64,000 nucleotides of DNA from IMG/VR virus record IMGVR_UViG_3300035181_000401, positions 23,460-87,459 of that record. One strand, 5' to 3'. The notes under the pieces are model-generated. The model was not told where the DNA came from, ran no database searches, and worked only from the letters and a program-made list of their open reading frames with translations. A program made the position numbers and the translations under genes. The stretch comes from a virus. Below, one piece after another: positions 2,966 to 64,000 of the stretch (the first letter of the stretch is position 1; each line of letters starts with the position of its first letter).

Positions 2966-3324
2966 TGCTTGATGGGCTCCCACGTCACCTTGTCGCCCTG
3001 AAGGACGAGCCAGCCCGCTCGGTCGTAGCCTTGGTAGCCAGCGTCCAGTTCGTCGCGGTCGGCCCACGCAGCCATGCCATTCGGGATCGTCGTGCCGTCG
3101 TTCCAGACGAGCTTGTACTTCGGCGGGATGACTTCGATCAGGTCGCAGTCCGGGTTGACTTCATGTCGGTACACGCGGCCGTTCTCAGCGAACGTCTCGA
3201 CGTACTCATCACCGCTCGTGTGCTGGCAGATGAAGACCAGCGGGTATTCGGTGTCGCCCGACAGGCGGCGCACGAACACGGCCGGACGCCCGCCCACGGT
3301 GTAGGTCTTGGAGGTGTCGATCAC
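2962..3324 (-). CDS. Unknown protein, 120 aa
   Basis: GTG start at 3324 overlapping the stop of the small upstream gene (GTGA); the peptide begins VIDTSKTYTVGGRPAVFVRR. Mostly beta-strand-like, with a C-terminal YDRAGWLVLQGDKVTWEPIKQ pattern typical of small phage-encoded beta domains. No catalytic motif seen. Part of a three-gene overlapping string (3321-3452, 2962-3324, 2582-2965). Confidence 0.73.
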   Translation of the reverse strand: MIDTSKTYTVGGRPAVFVRRLSGDTEYPLVFICQHTSGDEYVETFAENGRVYRHEVNPDCDLIEVIPPKYKLVWNDGTTIPNGMAAWADRDELDAGYQGYDRAGWLVLQGDKVTWEPIKQ

Positions 3325-3452
3325 GAGAGACGCCCCATCTTCTTCAGCTTCTTCTTCGCAGCGACGGCCTTGAGGCGATCCCGGGCGTTCTCGATCTGGT
3401 TCTTCGTGTGGGTGGCGAGGGCCTTGCGGTCCCATTCGTGGCGGAAGTACAT
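3321..3452 (-). CDS. 43-aa basic peptide
   Basis: ATG 3452 follows AAGGAG at good spacing. The peptide starts MYFRHEWDRKALATH and ends in a lysine-rich helix (AAKKKLKKMGRLS), so it may bind nucleic acid. It lies just downstream of a tRNA-like gene and is coupled to the next gene by GTGA. Confidence 0.65.
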   Translation of the reverse strand: MYFRHEWDRKALATHTKNQIENARDRLKAVAAKKKLKKMGRLS

Positions 3453-3478
3453 TGTGTTGGTTCTCCTTGTATTGTGAG

Positions 3479-3555
3479 TGGTGGACGTGGCGGGACTTGA
3501 ACCCGCGATAACCTGCCTGTAGCCAGCAGCGATGACCTAACATATCACCACGCCC
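3479..3555 (-). tRNA. tRNA-like gene, anticodon position CTA (unusual)
   Basis: On the minus strand the 77-nt sequence has a 7-bp acceptor stem (GGGCGTG with CACGTCC), discriminator A, encoded CCA, a T-arm GCGGG-TTCAAGT-CCCGC and a D-arm with GG in the loop. The anticodon arm is CTGCT-GGCTACA-GGCAG, placing CTA at 34-36, the complement of amber UAG. Position 33 is G instead of the near-universal U and 31-39 is a T-G pair. It could be a suppressor-type tRNA, a degenerate tRNA or a tRNA mimic. It lies alone in the replication block, far from the main array. Confidence 0.6.
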
Positions 3556-3563
3556 GGAAGAAA

Positions 3564-4118
3564 TCAGGGCTTGACGATCTTGTAGGCCACGATGTCGAAG
3601 TCTTCGGCACCTTTGCCGCCACGGCCCGATCCGGGCGTACCCGCCGTGAGCCAGTTGTTGTGACCACAAACCGTGGTCCAATATTGCACCGTGTTCGGGG
3701 AGCCGCTGTCGTCGATGTAGCCATCACGGAACTTGACATGGACGACTGCATTTTTCGGGATCACCGGGACACTCTTGCCGTCGTGAAGCGTCCAGCCATC
3801 CACGGTCATCGTGACCTTGCCGGGCTCGTAGGCGGGCTTCTCATCCTTGAGAACGGGAGCCGTGTCGCCGAGGTTCAGCTTGTACTCGTACAGACCGTCC
3901 GCGACGTAGCGGCGTTCGACTTGCAGGCTACCGAAGCGTTCCTTGCGCATGTCGCGGAGACGCGCACTCACGCTGCTCTCGGGGTCTTTCGTCACGCGAC
4001 GGATGTCGCTGAGGGATCGCCACTGGCCGTCCTTCATGACGCCGAAGACGCGGAGGTACTGTTGGCCGAGGCGCTTGCCGTCACGGTCGTGCGTGTACGT
4101 GGAACCGTCGAAATGCAT
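3564..4118 (-). CDS. Unknown protein with winged-helix-like N-terminus
   Basis: 184 aa; ATG 4118 follows AAGGAGAACGACACTC. Residues about 20-65 (GVMKDGQWRSLSDIRRVTKDPESSVSARLRDMRKERFG) have the layout of a winged helix used by phage regulators. The C-terminal part is beta-rich with a Gly-rich loop (TAGTPGSGRGGKG). A DNA-binding role is only inferred. It is transcribed into the tRNA-like gene that follows. Confidence 0.72.
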   Translation of the reverse strand: MHFDGSTYTHDRDGKRLGQQYLRVFGVMKDGQWRSLSDIRRVTKDPESSVSARLRDMRKERFGSLQVERRYVADGLYEYKLNLGDTAPVLKDEKPAYEPGKVTMTVDGWTLHDGKSVPVIPKNAVVHVKFRDGYIDDSGSPNTVQYWTTVCGHNNWLTAGTPGSGRGGKGAEDFDIVAYKIVKP

Positions 4119-4137
4119 GAGTGTCGTTCTCCTTGTG

Positions 4138-4350
4138 TTAGGCCAGCACTTCGCTGGCGGGGACGTGGATGCCGTTCCGGTAGACGACGGGCACGCTGCG
4201 GTGGCCGTGGCTCAGGAGGAAGTTCTTGGCGTCCTCGTCATTGTCGATGTTTCGTTCCTCGAAGTCAATACCCGCAGACTTCAGTCGGGCTTTGAGGGTG
4301 TCGCAGCCTTGGCAGCGGTTTTTCGAGTAAACGATGAGGGATTGTTGCAT
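4138..4350 (-). CDS. Glutaredoxin-like thiol-redox protein
   Basis: 70 aa with the thioredoxin-fold start SLIVYSKNRCQGC, active-site CxxC at Cys13 and Cys16, then the cis-Pro segment RSVPVVYRNG. Phage glutaredoxins reduce ribonucleotide reductase, and a class II reductase is encoded 1.6 kb upstream in the same operon. ATG 4350 has GGAAGGAA in front. The same frame is open back to ATG 4476, which overlaps another stop (ATGA), so a 42-residue N-terminal extension is possible but not conserved-looking. Confidence 0.86.
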   Translation of the reverse strand: MQQSLIVYSKNRCQGCDTLKARLKSAGIDFEERNIDNDEDAKNFLLSHGHRSVPVVYRNGIHVPASEVLA

Positions 4351-4472
4351 GGTTCCTTCCGTGATGTCAAGAGGTTCGTTCTTCTTTCTTTTCAAGAGGC
4401 GCTTGCTGTTCCAGCCCTCCCATTTGCGAAGACGAGCGATGCATTCGCTCATCCCTGTAGGCTTTCGCCTTC

Positions 4473-4562
4473 TCATTCCATCGCCTTGTCGAGCACCCAC
4501 ACGAAGAGGCCGATCACGACGAGGAAGATGCTGCCGAGCACCAAGGCCGTTGTGAGGCTCAT
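4473..4562 (-). CDS. 29-aa membrane micropeptide (tentative)
   Basis: MSLTTALVLGSIFLVV... forms one hydrophobic helix ending VLDKAME. Its stop overlaps an ATG at 4476 (ATGA) as in real neighbouring genes, but there is no convincing ribosome site. Confidence 0.38.
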   Translation of the reverse strand: MSLTTALVLGSIFLVVIGLFVWVLDKAME

Positions 4563-16366: not shown

Positions 16367-17935
16367 TTACGCCTGCGATTGCAAGCGGTTGCGGATCGTG
16401 CCCCAGTCCTCTTCCACGAGGATCGTGCTGTCGCGGAAGACTTCACGGAGGAAGCCCGACTTCTCGGTTTCGACACCGACTTGATCGACCAGCACGTACT
16501 CGTCCGTGTCGCCCTTCTTGCCGACGACCAACAGGCCACGGGCACTCTTCTTGACACCGGAGTCCGTCTTCGGGTCTTTGAACAGTTCCTTGCCTTCGCC
16601 ATCCACCACAGCGTAGGTGGCCTTCACAGCGATGCCCAGCGTGTCACGGGTGACGTGCTGGTAGGTGTAGGAGCCGACGCCGAACACGACGTTCGAGGAC
16701 GCGAAGCCCTTGCGTTCGAGGCGGGCGAAGATTTCCTTGGCACGGTCGAGGGTGATCGAGTCACCATAGATCAGGCCGATGCAGGGGTCGAGTTCCTTGT
16801 AGCCCTTGGCGTTCACCGTGCCACCGAACTTGCGGTAGAGCGTCACGATGGAACCGTCCGCCTCTTCGAGCGTGATGAGGCTGTTGTCTTCCCGCACCAT
16901 GACCAGACCTTGCGCGATCAGGCCCGGGCGACGGTTCAGTTCCGACTCGTCGTAGCCACAGATGATCCGCACGGGGTCACCCGAGTCCGGACGGACGACC
17001 ACCTTGGCGAAGCCGAGAGCGTTCTTCTTGCGAGCACGGATTTCCGGCTCCAGCGCGGGCAGGTACTCGGTCAGCACCTTCCAGTAGTCGATGGTGTCCG
17101 ACACGATGGACACGATGCCTTCCGGGTAGTCCACCGAAATCCAGCGGCGCAGCGTCTCCATCTCGCCATCCACTGCGATGCCCAGCGAGGTCACGCTGTG
17201 CTCCGAAGCCGGGACGGAGCCCGCGATGAAGAACGTCTCCGCGTCCACGTTGTAGTAGTCCTCGATCAGATCGATGGCTTGGATGGTGTCCGTGCCTGTG
17301 AACGAGGCAAGGTGGCCGATGCCCGACAGGGCAGCAGCTTGACGACCCATCATGCCACGCATGGAGAAGTCGTGGCACTGGAACGGCACGTGCAGACGAT
17401 GGCCCACGGTCTTGTCGGCATACTCGTTGCACACCTTGAGGAACTGGAAAGCCGTAGTGGCGCTGGTCATCACGGGCCACAGTTCATCGGACAGGACGCT
17501 CTCGATGTATGTCACCAGCCACGCGAAGTCCGGGTGCGTGTTGAACACCGTCAGGACCGGCACCTTGAAGTTCACCAGTGAGCCTTCGGGCAGGGCCTTG
17601 ATGCACAGCGGCAGGTAGCCGAGGTCGTGCAGGGCCTCGATGTGATCGGTCGGGATGGAGTCCGGCCCGAGGGACGTGTCACAGCGGCGTTTGAACTTGG
17701 CGATGACTTCCGCCTTGGGGCGGTTGAAGAACGCTTCGTTGAACTCGCCGATCAGGAAGTCCTTCAGGAAGTGCTGGAGGCCGAGGACGACGACTTGCTG
17801 GTTGTCATCCGCCCACGCCATGTACTTGCCCGCACGCGGGGTCAGGTTGGCGTAGAGGAACGTCGTGCCCTCGCGCATGAACTTGCGGTGGGACAGTTTG
17901 TAGAAGTCGGCGGCGTGGAGGGGGAAGCTCTTCAT
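16367..17935 (-). CDS. nadV: Nicotinamide phosphoribosyltransferase family (NAMPT/Namat-like)
   Basis: 522 aa covering the full family. HDFSMRGMMGRQAA near 200, VVVRPDSGDP near 303, YGDSITLDRAKEI and VVFGVGSYTYQHVTRDTLG match the substrate and phosphate sites of NAMPT. The classical reaction is nicotinamide + PRPP to NMN. It is encoded directly after a PRPP-synthetase-like gene (4-nt gap). In a known phage counter-defence route (NARP1), enzymes of these two families make ADP-ribose pyrophosphate and then NAD+ directly. Which reaction applies here cannot be read from sequence alone. Confidence 0.92.
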   Translation of the reverse strand: MKSFPLHAADFYKLSHRKFMREGTTFLYANLTPRAGKYMAWADDNQQVVVLGLQHFLKDFLIGEFNEAFFNRPKAEVIAKFKRRCDTSLGPDSIPTDHIEALHDLGYLPLCIKALPEGSLVNFKVPVLTVFNTHPDFAWLVTYIESVLSDELWPVMTSATTAFQFLKVCNEYADKTVGHRLHVPFQCHDFSMRGMMGRQAAALSGIGHLASFTGTDTIQAIDLIEDYYNVDAETFFIAGSVPASEHSVTSLGIAVDGEMETLRRWISVDYPEGIVSIVSDTIDYWKVLTEYLPALEPEIRARKKNALGFAKVVVRPDSGDPVRIICGYDESELNRRPGLIAQGLVMVREDNSLITLEEADGSIVTLYRKFGGTVNAKGYKELDPCIGLIYGDSITLDRAKEIFARLERKGFASSNVVFGVGSYTYQHVTRDTLGIAVKATYAVVDGEGKELFKDPKTDSGVKKSARGLLVVGKKGDTDEYVLVDQVGVETEKSGFLREVFRDSTILVEEDWGTIRNRLQSQA

Positions 17936-17939
17936 GTGG

Positions 17940-18734
17940 TCAAATCTCCTTGACTTGGTTTCGGGCGTTCTCATTCATGAGATTTGCCACGTAGATGTTG
18001 TCGTAGTAGGGCAGCAGAACATCAGCACCCTTCGTGAAGAACCCGTGTGTGACGTACAGGTTCAGTTCGGCCGGGTCGTTTGCCCACAGCACCTTCGCCA
18101 GTTCGATGAACGTAGCACCTCCGTCACAGAGGTCGTCCACCACGCAGACCCGCTTGCCCTTGACCTTCGAGGCATCGTAGATGCGCGTGGAGAGGATGAC
18201 GCCGCGCTCGCCTCGAACCTTGTCCGCCACCAGAGCTTCAGCCATGCCATTCACGACTTGGCCGTGCTTGAAGACCTTCTTCGCAGCGCCAGCATCCGGA
18301 GCGATCAGGATGTCATGGATCGGAAGACGGATGGCGCATTCAGCTTGCGGCATCACGTTCAGTCGATCCACCACGGCTTCGAGCACGGTGCTGTGGGCAT
18401 CATACGTTTCCACGAACTCGAAGTCAAGGCTGTTGATGAACTGAGCCACCATCTTCAACGCATGGCCTTCGCCCGGGTTGCATCGGCGATCCTGACGACT
18501 GTACGGGAAGTACGGCATCCGGAGGAAGATGCGCTTGGCACCCGCATGACGCACGGCATCGACAGCTTGCGCCAGCGCCATCAGGTCATCGTTGCCCTCC
18601 CAGTGCAGATGAATCCACACGTCTTGGAACTCGATGAGGCTGGGAGCGGATTCGATCTTGAAGCCAGCTTCACCGCAAGGAAAGCGCCATTGCTTGACGG
18701 TCAGGTCGAGGCCACCAGATTGAACCTTCAGCAT
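17940..18734 (-). CDS. prs: Ribose-phosphate pyrophosphokinase-like (Prs/Adps-like)
   Basis: 264 aa. PYFPYSRQDRRCNPGE near residues 74-89 is the ATP loop region, DAHS near 113 is equivalent to the Prs DLH segment, and the PRPP loop is VCVVDDLCDGGATF near 200. It is shorter than cellular Prs (about 310), as in phage versions. It would make PRPP, or ADP-ribose pyrophosphate if it is an Adps-type enzyme, for the adjacent nicotinamide transferase. It overlaps the upstream gene. Confidence 0.88.
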   Translation of the reverse strand: MLKVQSGGLDLTVKQWRFPCGEAGFKIESAPSLIEFQDVWIHLHWEGNDDLMALAQAVDAVRHAGAKRIFLRMPYFPYSRQDRRCNPGEGHALKMVAQFINSLDFEFVETYDAHSTVLEAVVDRLNVMPQAECAIRLPIHDILIAPDAGAAKKVFKHGQVVNGMAEALVADKVRGERGVILSTRIYDASKVKGKRVCVVDDLCDGGATFIELAKVLWANDPAELNLYVTHGFFTKGADVLLPYYDNIYVANLMNENARNQVKEI

Positions 18735-19030
18735 TGGAAGATCGCCACGTCGAGGGCGGAGAAGATGATGTCCACTTCCCCGTAGAAGGAGTACATCCGG
18801 AAGACCGGCAGCCCTTCGGTGAAGAACACCTCGGAATGGAGCGGCTTGCACTCGCACAGGTCGGCGAGGTCGCCTTCGATGCTGTCGATGATGCCTTCGA
18901 CGGGCTGGACGATGTACCGGGGTTCGTCCGGGTTGCCGTCTTCGGTGAAGATTTCGATGAGTTCATCACCCACGACGTTGATGCCGATGATGGTGTGGCG
19001 CAGCAGCGCCTCGGGGTCACAGAGAATCAT
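18728..19030 (-). CDS. Unknown acidic protein, 100 aa
   Basis: ATG 19030 after AAGGAGCTTG. Starts MILCDPEALLRHTIIG; beta-rich and acidic, with CECKPLHSEVFFTEGLP. No family recognised; coupled to the Prs-like gene by overlap. Confidence 0.72.
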   Translation of the reverse strand: MILCDPEALLRHTIIGINVVGDELIEIFTEDGNPDEPRYIVQPVEGIIDSIEGDLADLCECKPLHSEVFFTEGLPVFRMYSFYGEVDIIFSALDVAIFQC

Positions 19031-62252: not shown

Positions 62253-63097
62253 TGAAGCCTTCACAAGAAATTTATGAAAGCAGCCTTGCGCTGCCTCCTG
62301 CAAGTGATATGATCGGGGAAATCCTGCTCTGTGCGGAACGAGGCCCACAGCCTCAAATCTGTGCATGGCGGGCCACCTACGGTGAAACAGGTGCGGTGTG
62401 GGTTCCGCTCGGTGACAGCTTCACAGGTGTCATGGCGAACTGTCCTGCGGCAACAGATGTCCGAACAGGCGCGACGGTGTTCCTGACTGACCTTGGCGTC
62501 CGTGCGATGCCGGGAGATACCAGCTACACTAACGTCGGTGGGCGTCTCCGTTCCAACGGCACGCGATGGGTTCCCGCTCCGGGCATGTCGGTCGTCCTCG
62601 TTGAGATTTACGCCACTGCTGCAACCCCTTGGGGCTCGTCTGGTGCCGGTTCTGTCGCCAACCTTGGCTCTACGGACATCACGCACGCTGCCGGTGCTGT
62701 TCCGACCATTGGTCCGAACATCATTCAGAGCGGTTCGATTCTTCGACATGAGCTTCTGAGCAAGCGGATTGCTGGCACGACCAGCAGCGCGGGCCTTTTG
62801 GCTGGCGTCATGGCGAACAGTCAATTCATGTTCGGTGCTTCGTTCTCAGCTGCTGGTGCTGCTGCGGAAGCTCCTGCGGACGGTCAGACGATCATCACAG
62901 GTGACACCACGTTCACAGGTCGCGCCTATCAGTTGTTCGGCGTGCAGAACGTCGGCAGCTACACAGATGTGACTTCCATGAGCCCGAACGTTCGGACAAC
63001 CGGCCTTCAACTGAAGTGCGTGAAGTTCAACAACACGGGCTCCGCCAACACCGACAATCTCGGTATGCATTTCTGGCGAACAACTTTGATTGGCTAA
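62252..63097 (+). CDS. Structural/tail-fibre-type protein, 281 aa
   Basis: ATG 62252 shares bases with the spike stop (TAATG). Gly/Ala/Thr/Ser-rich beta protein with a central VGGRLRSNGTRWVPAPG carbohydrate-type segment and a sandwich-like C-terminus (LQLKCVKFNNTGSANTDNLGMHFW). Probably a virion protein that works with the spike. Not recognised further. Confidence 0.72.
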   Translation: MKPSQEIYESSLALPPASDMIGEILLCAERGPQPQICAWRATYGETGAVWVPLGDSFTGVMANCPAATDVRTGATVFLTDLGVRAMPGDTSYTNVGGRLRSNGTRWVPAPGMSVVLVEIYATAATPWGSSGAGSVANLGSTDITHAAGAVPTIGPNIIQSGSILRHELLSKRIAGTTSSAGLLAGVMANSQFMFGASFSAAGAAAEAPADGQTIITGDTTFTGRAYQLFGVQNVGSYTDVTSMSPNVRTTGLQLKCVKFNNTGSANTDNLGMHFWRTTLIG

Positions 63098-63101
63098 ACG
63101 C

Positions 63102-63129
63102 TTGACAAACAAGCGTTCCGTGCTACAAT
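63102..63129 (+). promoter_or_regulatory. Promoter of the tRNA array
   Basis: TTGACA - 16 bp - TACAAT. The expected start, 7 nt past the -10, is 63136, exactly the first base of the tRNA-Met-like gene. AACGCTTGACAAACAAGCGTT makes an inverted repeat around the -35. Confidence 0.88.
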
Positions 63130-63135
63130 AGCTTC

Positions 63136-63319
63136 ACGGTTGTAGCTCAGTGGCTCAGAAAATCCCTCTCAAGCAAGAGAGGGAATTCTAGACCCTCCCT
63201 CGATTGAGCGGAAGGGGATTAGTACGAGTAGAGCAACGGACTCATAATCCGTAGGTCGCCAGCCGCGTGGAACGGAAGTCATGAGCCGAGAAACGTGGAA
63301 CGTCTGGTCAGCCGTACCG
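63136..63319 (+). tRNA. tRNA-Met(CAT)-like gene with large D-loop and T-loop inserts
   Basis: 7-bp acceptor ACGGTTG (63136-63142) with CAGCCGT (63309-63315), then A-CCG. D-stem GCTC (63145-63148) with GAGC (63231-63234) encloses an 82-nt loop. Anticodon arm ACGGA-CTCATAA-TCCGT (63236-63252), anticodon CAT at 63243. T-stem GCCAG (63258-63262) with CTGGT (63304-63308) encloses 41 nt. Bases flanking the inserts match the tRNA-Thr next to it. Whether it gives a functional tRNA is unknown. Confidence 0.62.
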
Positions 63320-63326
63320 AACACTT

Positions 63327-63402
63327 GCCCTTGTAGCTCAGTGGTAGAGCAACCGCCTTGTAAGCGGTAGGTCGTCAGTTCGATTCTGGACCTAGGGCAC
63401 CA
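63327..63402 (+). tRNA. tRNA-Thr(TGT)
   Basis: Cloverleaf with GCCCTTG acceptor (one T-T mismatch), D-arm GCTCAGTGGTAGAGC, anticodon arm ACCGC-CTTGTAA-GCGGT, T-loop TTCGATT and encoded CCA. Reads ACA. Confidence 0.93.
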
Positions 63403-63408
63403 TATTAC

Positions 63409-63495
63409 GCCCGCCTGCCGAAACTGGTAGACGGACCGGCTTGAGAGGCCGGGGACCGAAAGGTCGTGCAGGTTCGAGTCCTGCGGTGGGCACCA
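63409..63495 (+). tRNA. tRNA-Leu(GAG)
   Basis: 87 nt class II tRNA with extra arm GGGACCGAAAGGTC. Anticodon arm CCGGC-TTGAGAG-GCCGG, T-loop TTCGAGT, encoded CCA. Reads CUC/CUU. Confidence 0.94.
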
Positions 63496-63504
63496 AGAAC
63501 AAAT

Positions 63505-63580
63505 GCGGGATAGCTCAGTCTGGTAGAGCGTCGGCCTCATAAGCCGAAGGTCGTGGGTTCAAATCCCGCTCCCGCAACCA
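63505..63580 (+). tRNA. tRNA-Met(CAT)
   Basis: Acceptor GCGGGA..., D-arm GCTCAGTCTGGTAGAGC, anticodon arm CGGC-CTCATAA-GCCG, T-arm GTGGGTTCAAATCCCGC, encoded CCA. Elongator-Met or, if lysidine-modified, tRNA-Ile(CAU). Shows the array has a normal CAT tRNA besides the interrupted one. Confidence 0.93.
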
Positions 63581-63727
63581 AGACATACTGAAGGGTGGTG
63601 CAATCTCGTGCCCTTCGTTCGTCGGCGGCTCCAAACAGCAGTGTGAGAAGAACTCTGCGACGGTGGAGTAGACCTCGCTCAAACGAGATGCGGAGCACAG
63701 CGAATAGGCAGGTATGCCACTTACCCT
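63581..63727 (+). other. Long structured spacer in the tRNA array
   Basis: 147 nt with GAAGGG...CCCTTC, GCAG...CTGC and a long-range ATCTCGT/ACGAGAT pairing. No cloverleaf could be drawn and no gene is seen. Confidence 0.45.
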
Positions 63728-63803
63728 TGCCGGGTAGCTCAGTTGGTAGAGCAAACGGCCGATAACCGTTAGGTCACTGGTTCGAGTCCAGTTCTGGCAA
63801 CCA
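63728..63803 (+). tRNA. tRNA-Ile(GAT) with C33
   Basis: Acceptor TGCCGGG/TCTGGCA, D-arm GCTCAGTTGGTAGAGC, anticodon arm AACGG-CCGATAA-CCGTT, T-loop TTCGAGT, encoded CCA. The base before the anticodon is C rather than U. Reads AUC/AUU. Confidence 0.88.
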
Positions 63804-63897
63804 AAATTCTCATGGGGTGGGAAGCGTCTCAACAAGCGACGTTAAAATCTTGTGTCGGTCCTGACCAGCGGACCTTAACTGCTGGCACGAATTCAGT

Positions 63898-63973
63898 TGG
63901 GGGTTAGCTCAGTTGGTAGAGCAACGGGTTTTGATCCCGTTGGTCGTAGGTTCGAGTCCTACACCCCTTGCCA
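63898..63973 (+). tRNA. tRNA-Gln(TTG)
   Basis: TGGGGGT acceptor with ACCCCTT, discriminator G and CCA, D-arm GCTCAGTTGGTAGAGC, anticodon arm ACGGG-TTTTGAT-CCCGT. The weak 1-72 pair and G73 fit tRNA-Gln. Reads CAA. Confidence 0.92.
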
Positions 63974-63979
63974 AGATTT

Positions 63980-64000
63980 GCCCTCATCGTCTAACTGGTT
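63980..64000 (+). tRNA. 5' end of another tRNA (Glu/Asp-like, partial)
   Basis: GCCCTCATCGTCTAACTGGTT has an acceptor strand and a D-arm of tRNA-Glu type (TCGTCTAA). Cut off by the window edge, so the anticodon is unseen. Confidence 0.55.

What the first reader, a model, noticed from the sequence alone, without database searches (positions are those of the whole stretch)
63136..63319. A tRNA-Met-like gene carrying separate inserts in its D-loop and T-loop
Seen: acceptor (7 bp), D (4 bp), anticodon (5 bp, CTCATAA loop) and T (5 bp) stems all pair. The D-loop is 82 nt (63149-63230) and the T-loop 41 nt (63263-63303) instead of about 8 and 7. Exon parts match the neighbouring tRNA-Thr almost base for base, and the promoter start coincides with base 1. 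The D insert holds an 8-bp hairpin TCCCTCTC/GAGAGGGA; the T insert has CGTGGAACG twice. Known tRNA introns mostly sit in the anticodon loop, and D- and T-loop inserts would break the tRNA elbow. It could be a doubly spliced tRNA (the phage encodes two RNA ligases), a decoy, a nuclease trap or a new structured RNA.
Basis: partly seen in the sequence, partly recalled or inferred. Interest (0 to 1): 0.86.

Follow-up and report, generated by a model that had tools for sequence, protein, structure and literature searches.

The report
tRNA-Met-like phage RNA with hairpin inserts
At the head of a phage's tRNA gene cluster sits a tRNA-Met-like gene whose two elbow loops are swollen by structured hairpins; the feature is real and rare, it cannot be turned back into a standard tRNA by cutting the inserts out, and it is more likely a tRNA look-alike RNA (or a recently disabled tRNA) than a spliced tRNA.

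Summary
Observation confirmed. 63136-63315 pairs 21 of 21 cloverleaf positions (19 Watson-Crick), with an 82-nt D-loop and a 41-nt T-loop. No equally good match occurred in 16.8 Mb of shuffled sequence. ARAGORN and Rfam do not call it. It is the first unit of a 16-tRNA array, directly behind a TTGACA-16-TACAAT promoter. The D insert (63154-63228, 75 nt, two hairpins) interrupts an otherwise canonical D-loop exactly. The T-loop has been replaced, not just interrupted: no single excision can restore TTCRA, so the 'doubly spliced tRNA' reading fails on the T side. The genome encodes RtcB and an Rnl-type ligase but no tRNA-splicing endonuclease. No relative shares the layout (the closest phages, L008 and L009, lack it), so there is no covariation test. 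Among about 770 perfect phage cloverleaves scanned, one other clear D-loop-insert tRNA turned up (L058, CUA suppressor); a Roseivirga tRNA-Met copy with D- and T-loop hairpins is a decayed parallel. Best reading: a lineage-specific tRNA(CAU)-derived structured RNA, probably a non-translating mimic (0.4), with a recently disabled pseudogene close behind (0.3). The array also holds other structured RNAs, one conserved across several phages and absent from Rfam.

The parts
63102..63129 (+). sigma-70-like promoter TTGACA-16-TACAAT
   Evidence: 11 of 12 matches; 0.4 expected in shuffles
63136..63315 (+). tRNA(CAT)-like cloverleaf, acceptor to acceptor; discriminator A63316, then CCG
   Evidence: 21/21 stem pairs
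63136..63153 (+). exon-like part 1: acceptor 5' strand, TA, D-stem 5', AGTGG
   Evidence: D-insert-free exons match phage tRNA-Met (Typha, 91.8%)
63154..63228 (+). D-loop insert, 75 nt: closing CTC/GAG, 8-bp hairpin TCCCTCTC/GAGAGGGA, second hairpin CCCTCCCTC/GAG-GG-AGGG
   Evidence: fold z = -3.2; enforced cloverleaf fold
63229..63262 (+). exon-like part 2: TA, D-stem 3', anticodon arm (loop CTCATAA), variable loop, T-stem 5'
63263..63303 (+). T-loop replacement, 41 nt: CCGCGT/ACGTGG helix, GGAA/AGAA internal loop, CGG/CCG; no TTCRA obtainable
63304..63315 (+). exon-like part 3: T-stem 3' and acceptor 3' strand
63327..63402 (+). next unit of the array, tRNA-Thr(TGT), 10 nt after the discriminator base

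Best explanation
A tRNA-Met(CAU)-derived structured RNA that is no longer a translating tRNA. The acceptor, anticodon and T stems and all checked consensus bases outside the T-loop are kept, while the D- and T-arms are extended by helices that would break the normal elbow. It is probably transcribed from its own promoter as the first, nearly leaderless unit of the tRNA operon, and would act as a tRNA mimic, for example a competitive decoy for tRNA-targeting nucleases or other tRNA-binding proteins. Shown: pairing, inserts, promoter match, loss of TTCRA. Inferred: expression, non-translation, decoy role.
For: 21/21 pairs with no mismatch although the T-loop consensus is wholly lost. Inserts fold as coaxial extensions of the arms at almost no energy cost to the cloverleaf (-64.6 vs -65.1 kcal/mol). 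D insert more stable than shuffles (z = -3.2). Intact strong promoter. The array holds other structured RNAs, e.g. L005 183-439 with homologues in several phage tRNA arrays. Sister phage L008 carries a YrlA-ordered tRNA-like RNA beside a gene of the phage RNA-binding family phrog_850. The phage carries tRNA-repair-type ligases. [quoted passage not shown]
Against: One genome only; no homologue of the layout in viral contigs, phages or genomes, so no covariation. The T insert alone is not more stable than shuffles (z = -1.6). Canonical D-stem probability is only 0.11 without constraint. No expression data. Perfect stems could also mean recent insertion.
Confidence: 0.4

Rival explanations
1. A recently disabled tRNA-Met pseudogene: hairpin sequences entered the D- and T-loops and nothing has yet decayed in the stems.
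For: TTCRA lost, CCA replaced by CCG, layout absent from relatives that keep the array (L008, L009). A normal tRNA-Met(CAT) lies at 63504. A decayed parallel exists: the Roseivirga tRNA-Met copy (L306) with D- and T-loop hairpins, lacking its acceptor 3' strand, beside an intact tRNA-Met.
Against: Zero mismatches in 21 pairs, promoter intact, both inserts structured and coaxial with the arms.
Confidence: 0.3
2. A leader element of the tRNA operon: a folded 5' end that protects the long polycistronic transcript or controls its transcription or processing.
For: First unit behind the promoter, inferred start at base 1, 10 nt from discriminator to tRNA-Thr; insert hairpin 1 is terminator-like on the minus strand.
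Against: No terminator on the plus strand; L008 and L009 arrays begin with ordinary tRNA-Tyr and have no such leader.
Confidence: 0.14
3. A doubly interrupted pre-tRNA from which both inserts are excised and the exons rejoined by phage RtcB or the Rnl-type ligase.
For: D insert interrupts a canonical loop exactly (AGTGG|TA); joined exons match ordinary phage tRNA-Met; RtcB and RNA ligase encoded.
Against: No single T-arm excision gives TTCRA; no EndA homologue; no intron or ribozyme family in the inserts; the D junction shows 4-nt and 1-nt gaps rather than a 3/3 bulge-helix-bulge.
Confidence: 0.1
4. A translating tRNA that simply tolerates expanded arms, as other tRNAs of this phage have odd T-loops (tRNA-Phe, L005 843-918, loop GGCAGAG).
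For: All stems and identity-relevant bases kept; a D-loop-insert tRNA with canonical T-loop exists in L058.
Against: Two large inserts at the elbow would be expected to clash with the ribosome (general knowledge); a normal tRNA-Met is present.
Confidence: 0.06

Closest known systems
Ordinary phage tRNA-Met genes (e.g. Mycobacterium phage Typha)
   Same: Joined exons 63136-63153 + 63229-63262 match at 91.8% over 90% of the query
   Different: 75-nt D insert, T-loop replaced by 41 nt, CCG instead of CCA
Archaeal pre-tRNAs with multiple or non-canonical introns (review PMC4090602)
   Same: Interruptions outside the canonical intron site, more than one per gene
   Different: No bulge-helix-bulge, no EndA gene, and excision cannot rebuild the T-loop
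Bacterial Y RNAs of the YrlA type (RF02553)
   Same: Structured RNA that mimics a tRNA; such an RNA seems present in sister phage L008
   Different: YrlA has T-arm before D-arm inside a long stem; here the order is normal, the acceptor stem is closed, and no TROVE or L008-type protein was found
GOLLD and other large ncRNAs known from phages and tRNA clusters (PMC12286853, PMC6582537; titles and abstracts only)
   Same: Structured RNA associated with phage or tRNA clusters
   Different: No Rfam match; far smaller and built on a tRNA frame
L058 6922-7029, tRNA(CUA) with a 45-nt D-loop
   Same: Perfect cloverleaf with a hairpin-bearing D-loop insert in a phage tRNA array, missed by ARAGORN
   Different: Canonical T-loop TTCGATT, amber-suppressor anticodon, unrelated sequence

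Membership tests
Canonical tRNA | 7+4(3)+5+5 bp cloverleaf | tested here: met
   21/21 pairs
Canonical tRNA | T-loop TTCRANY and short D-loop | tested here: not met
   41-nt T-loop without TTCRA, 82-nt D-loop
Canonical tRNA | Recognised by tRNA models | tested here: not met
   Not called by ARAGORN or by Rfam RF00005 even at E<=10
Protein-spliced intron-containing pre-tRNA | Excision restores a standard tRNA | tested here: not met
   D side yes, T side no
Protein-spliced intron-containing pre-tRNA | Splicing endonuclease in the same genome | tested here: not met
   No PF01974 match in the phage; controls positive. The host is unknown.
Protein-spliced intron-containing pre-tRNA | Joined reads in RNA | not testable with these tools
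   no RNA data
Self-splicing group I/II intron | Intron covariance model match | tested here: not met
   No match in 63090-64000 up to E=10
Y RNA (YrlA type) | T-arm/D-arm order inside a long stem and Ro60 partner | tested here: not met
   normal tRNA order; no TROVE and no L008-type protein in the genome
tRNA pseudogene | Stem decay relative to functional copies | tested here: not met
   no mismatch in 21 pairs; loss of T-loop consensus is compatible with it
tRNA decoy for anticodon nucleases | Bound or cut by the nuclease in place of tRNA | not testable with these tools
   needs biochemistry

The most novel reading that the evidence does not exclude
A bacterial virus makes a tRNA from a gene interrupted in both the D- and T-loops, removing the inserts with an unknown activity and sealing with its own RtcB, giving a tRNA with a non-standard T-loop.
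Probability: 0.08. Interest if true: 0.9.

Novelty: new variant of a known kind. Interest (0 to 1): 0.5.

Why it matters
If expressed, this would be a tRNA mimic built by extending the two elbow arms of a real tRNA, placed at the head of a phage tRNA operon in a genome with RNA-repair genes; it would give a concrete test of the idea that phages use tRNA look-alikes against tRNA-targeting defence. It also shows that standard finders miss tRNA-derived genes with loop inserts, of which a second phage case (L058) was found here.

Tried and rejected
Relatives by neighbouring gene: none in viral contigs. Exact anticodon arm: none. D-loop-insert patterns in viral and genome collections gave almost only tandem or partly duplicated tRNAs, recognised by a second D-arm in the gap; in genome loci partial duplications mimic the layout. 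Most of these patterns required two bases before GG, so they would not have matched the candidate's own AGTGG spacing; only one search did. BLAST of each insert in phages: only chance-level hits. Inserts do not recur in the phage or in the held loci. Trans-splicing with a distant 3' half: no TTCRA T-arm followed by a matching acceptor in the genome. D-insert/T-insert kissing: one 6-bp complement GGCTCA/TGAGCC, about 0.7 expected, so not used. Y RNA and Ro60: excluded for this phage. Ile2 identity: acceptor pairs G4-C69, T5-G68 do not look like the lysidine-synthetase type, from memory only.

Full report
Setting. The window is bases 23460-87459 of an 87,459-base IMG/VR virus record. The record ends in a 127-base terminal repeat, so the tRNA array that begins at 63136 continues at the other end of the record (L005). 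The array holds tRNA-Thr, Leu, Met, Ile, Gln, Glu, Asp, Lys, Asn, Tyr, Trp, Ser, Pro, His, a tRNA-Phe that only Rfam calls and a tRNA-Ala-like gene at L005 927-1003 that hits the tmRNA model. Terminase relatives among named phages are Pseudomonas phages at about 42% identity. The closest contigs are L007 (identical, but starting inside the array, so it does not cover the candidate), L008 and L009 (74%).

The observation. A strict cloverleaf scan with free D- and T-loop lengths finds the candidate with 21 of 21 pairs, 19 of them Watson-Crick, D-loop 82 and T-loop 41. Ten dinucleotide shuffles of the window gave none, and 16.8 Mb of shuffled phage sequence gave none with 19 or more Watson-Crick pairs. 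With the D insert removed, the exons match ordinary phage tRNA-Met genes. A strong promoter-like site ends 7 nt before base 1. Against tRNA-Thr the exons differ at 10 of 52 positions; five differences are paired changes in the acceptor and anticodon stems (counted by hand), so the gene long kept its pairing, though this does not date the inserts.

Anatomy. The D insert is bounded by complementary ends (CTC/GAG) and holds two hairpins; it is more stable than shuffles (z = -3.2). The T-loop replacement extends the T stem by a 6-bp helix with a GGAA/AGAA internal loop; alone it is not exceptional (z = -1.6). With the cloverleaf enforced, the energy is -64.6 against -65.1 kcal/mol for the best fold, although the canonical D stem has a probability of only 0.11 without constraint. 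Consensus bases outside the T-loop (T8, A14, GG of the D-loop, A21, T33, A37, G53-C61) are present by inspection.

Can it be spliced into a tRNA? On the D side yes: removing 63154-63228 leaves AGTGGTA, the same loop as in tRNA-Thr. On the T side no: enumeration of every single excision between 63253 and 63308 never yields TTCRA, and ARAGORN calls a tRNA only when TTCGAAT is put in artificially. No EndA homologue, no intron family and no matching 3' half elsewhere were found. RtcB and an Rnl-type RNA ligase are encoded, but these also fit tRNA repair.

Relatives and parallels. No homologue of the layout was found in viral contigs, named phages or genomes; L008 and L009 start their arrays with ordinary tRNA-Tyr. 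An insert-tolerant scan of 2.1 Mb of viral loci, with 773 normal perfect cloverleaves, found one further clear case: L058 6922-7029, a CUA tRNA with 21 Watson-Crick pairs, canonical T-loop and a 45-nt D-loop with a hairpin. In a Roseivirga assembly a second tRNA-Met copy carries hairpins in the D-loop and before the T-loop, but lacks its acceptor 3' strand; a related genome has a similar tRNA 3' fragment downstream of the normal gene. That case looks like decay and shows how such a layout can arise without function.

Context. The gaps of the array are not empty. L005 183-439 belongs to an RNA with invariant GAGAAACAC...GTGAAAAGTCGGAA found in tRNA arrays of several phages and absent from Rfam. 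63581-63727 shares a motif with L009 and with a 183-kb phage. L008 carries tRNA-like RNAs in permuted, YrlA-like order beside a DUF2828/DUF7788 protein of the phage RNA-binding family phrog_850. So structured and tRNA-mimicking RNAs are at home in such arrays, which is why I rank a mimic above a pseudogene, but only slightly: with one sequence there is no covariation and no expression evidence.

Verdict.

Noticed in passing
L005 183-439 (the other end of the same record); L009 4208-4452; L158, L159, L160, L161, L162, L163, L165: Structured RNA with invariant GAGAAACAC...GTGAAAAGTCGGAA and a long variable outer stem, lying in tRNA arrays of several phages; no Rfam match. L009 copy folds at z = -6.7.
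   Followed up: partly
window 63581-63727; L009 5040-5161; L166: Gap RNA sharing GCAATCTCGTGCC...AAACGAGATGC between tRNA genes in three phages.
   Followed up: partly
L008 2698-2850 and 2920-3060: tRNA-like RNAs in permuted order (T-arm, acceptor hairpin, D-arm) inside a stem; the first weakly matches YrlA (E=0.17, below its cut-off), next to a DUF2828/DUF7788 gene at 3093-4514.
   Followed up: partly
L008 2651-2706 and three similar copies nearby: Short stem elements with TTNCAGCA...AAAAA; one resembles Dictyostelium class I RNA below its cut-off (26.9 bits, E=0.006).
   Followed up: no
L058 6922-7029: tRNA with CUA (amber) anticodon and a 45-nt D-loop containing a hairpin, 21/21 Watson-Crick pairs; ARAGORN misses it.
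   Followed up: partly
L306 (minus strand 511-690) and L373 501-640: Roseivirga tRNA-Met locus with extra tRNA pieces carrying palindromic hairpins; an open frame resembling a GIY-YIG endonuclease (by eye) lies beside it in L373.
   Followed up: partly
L005 843-918: tRNA-Phe with a non-standard T-loop GGCAGAG and D-loop AGATAGTA; missed by ARAGORN, scored by Rfam at 54.9 bits.
   Followed up: no
L009 4745-4838 and L165 near 1125-1215: Conserved tRNA-Ser-like RNA (CGGATCGACAGGGACAATAACCCGG) with a variable hairpin after GCGGTG, in two phages.
   Followed up: partly
L157 3432-3570: Two overlapping tRNA genes (Phe 3432-3503, Met 3498-3570) sharing six bases.
   Followed up: no
L018 5744-5953: Group I intron match (78.6 bits) near the terminase region of a distant relative.
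   Followed up: no
window 16367-18857: Nicotinamide phosphoribosyltransferase and ribose-phosphate pyrophosphokinase genes side by side, suggesting NAD salvage.
   Followed up: no
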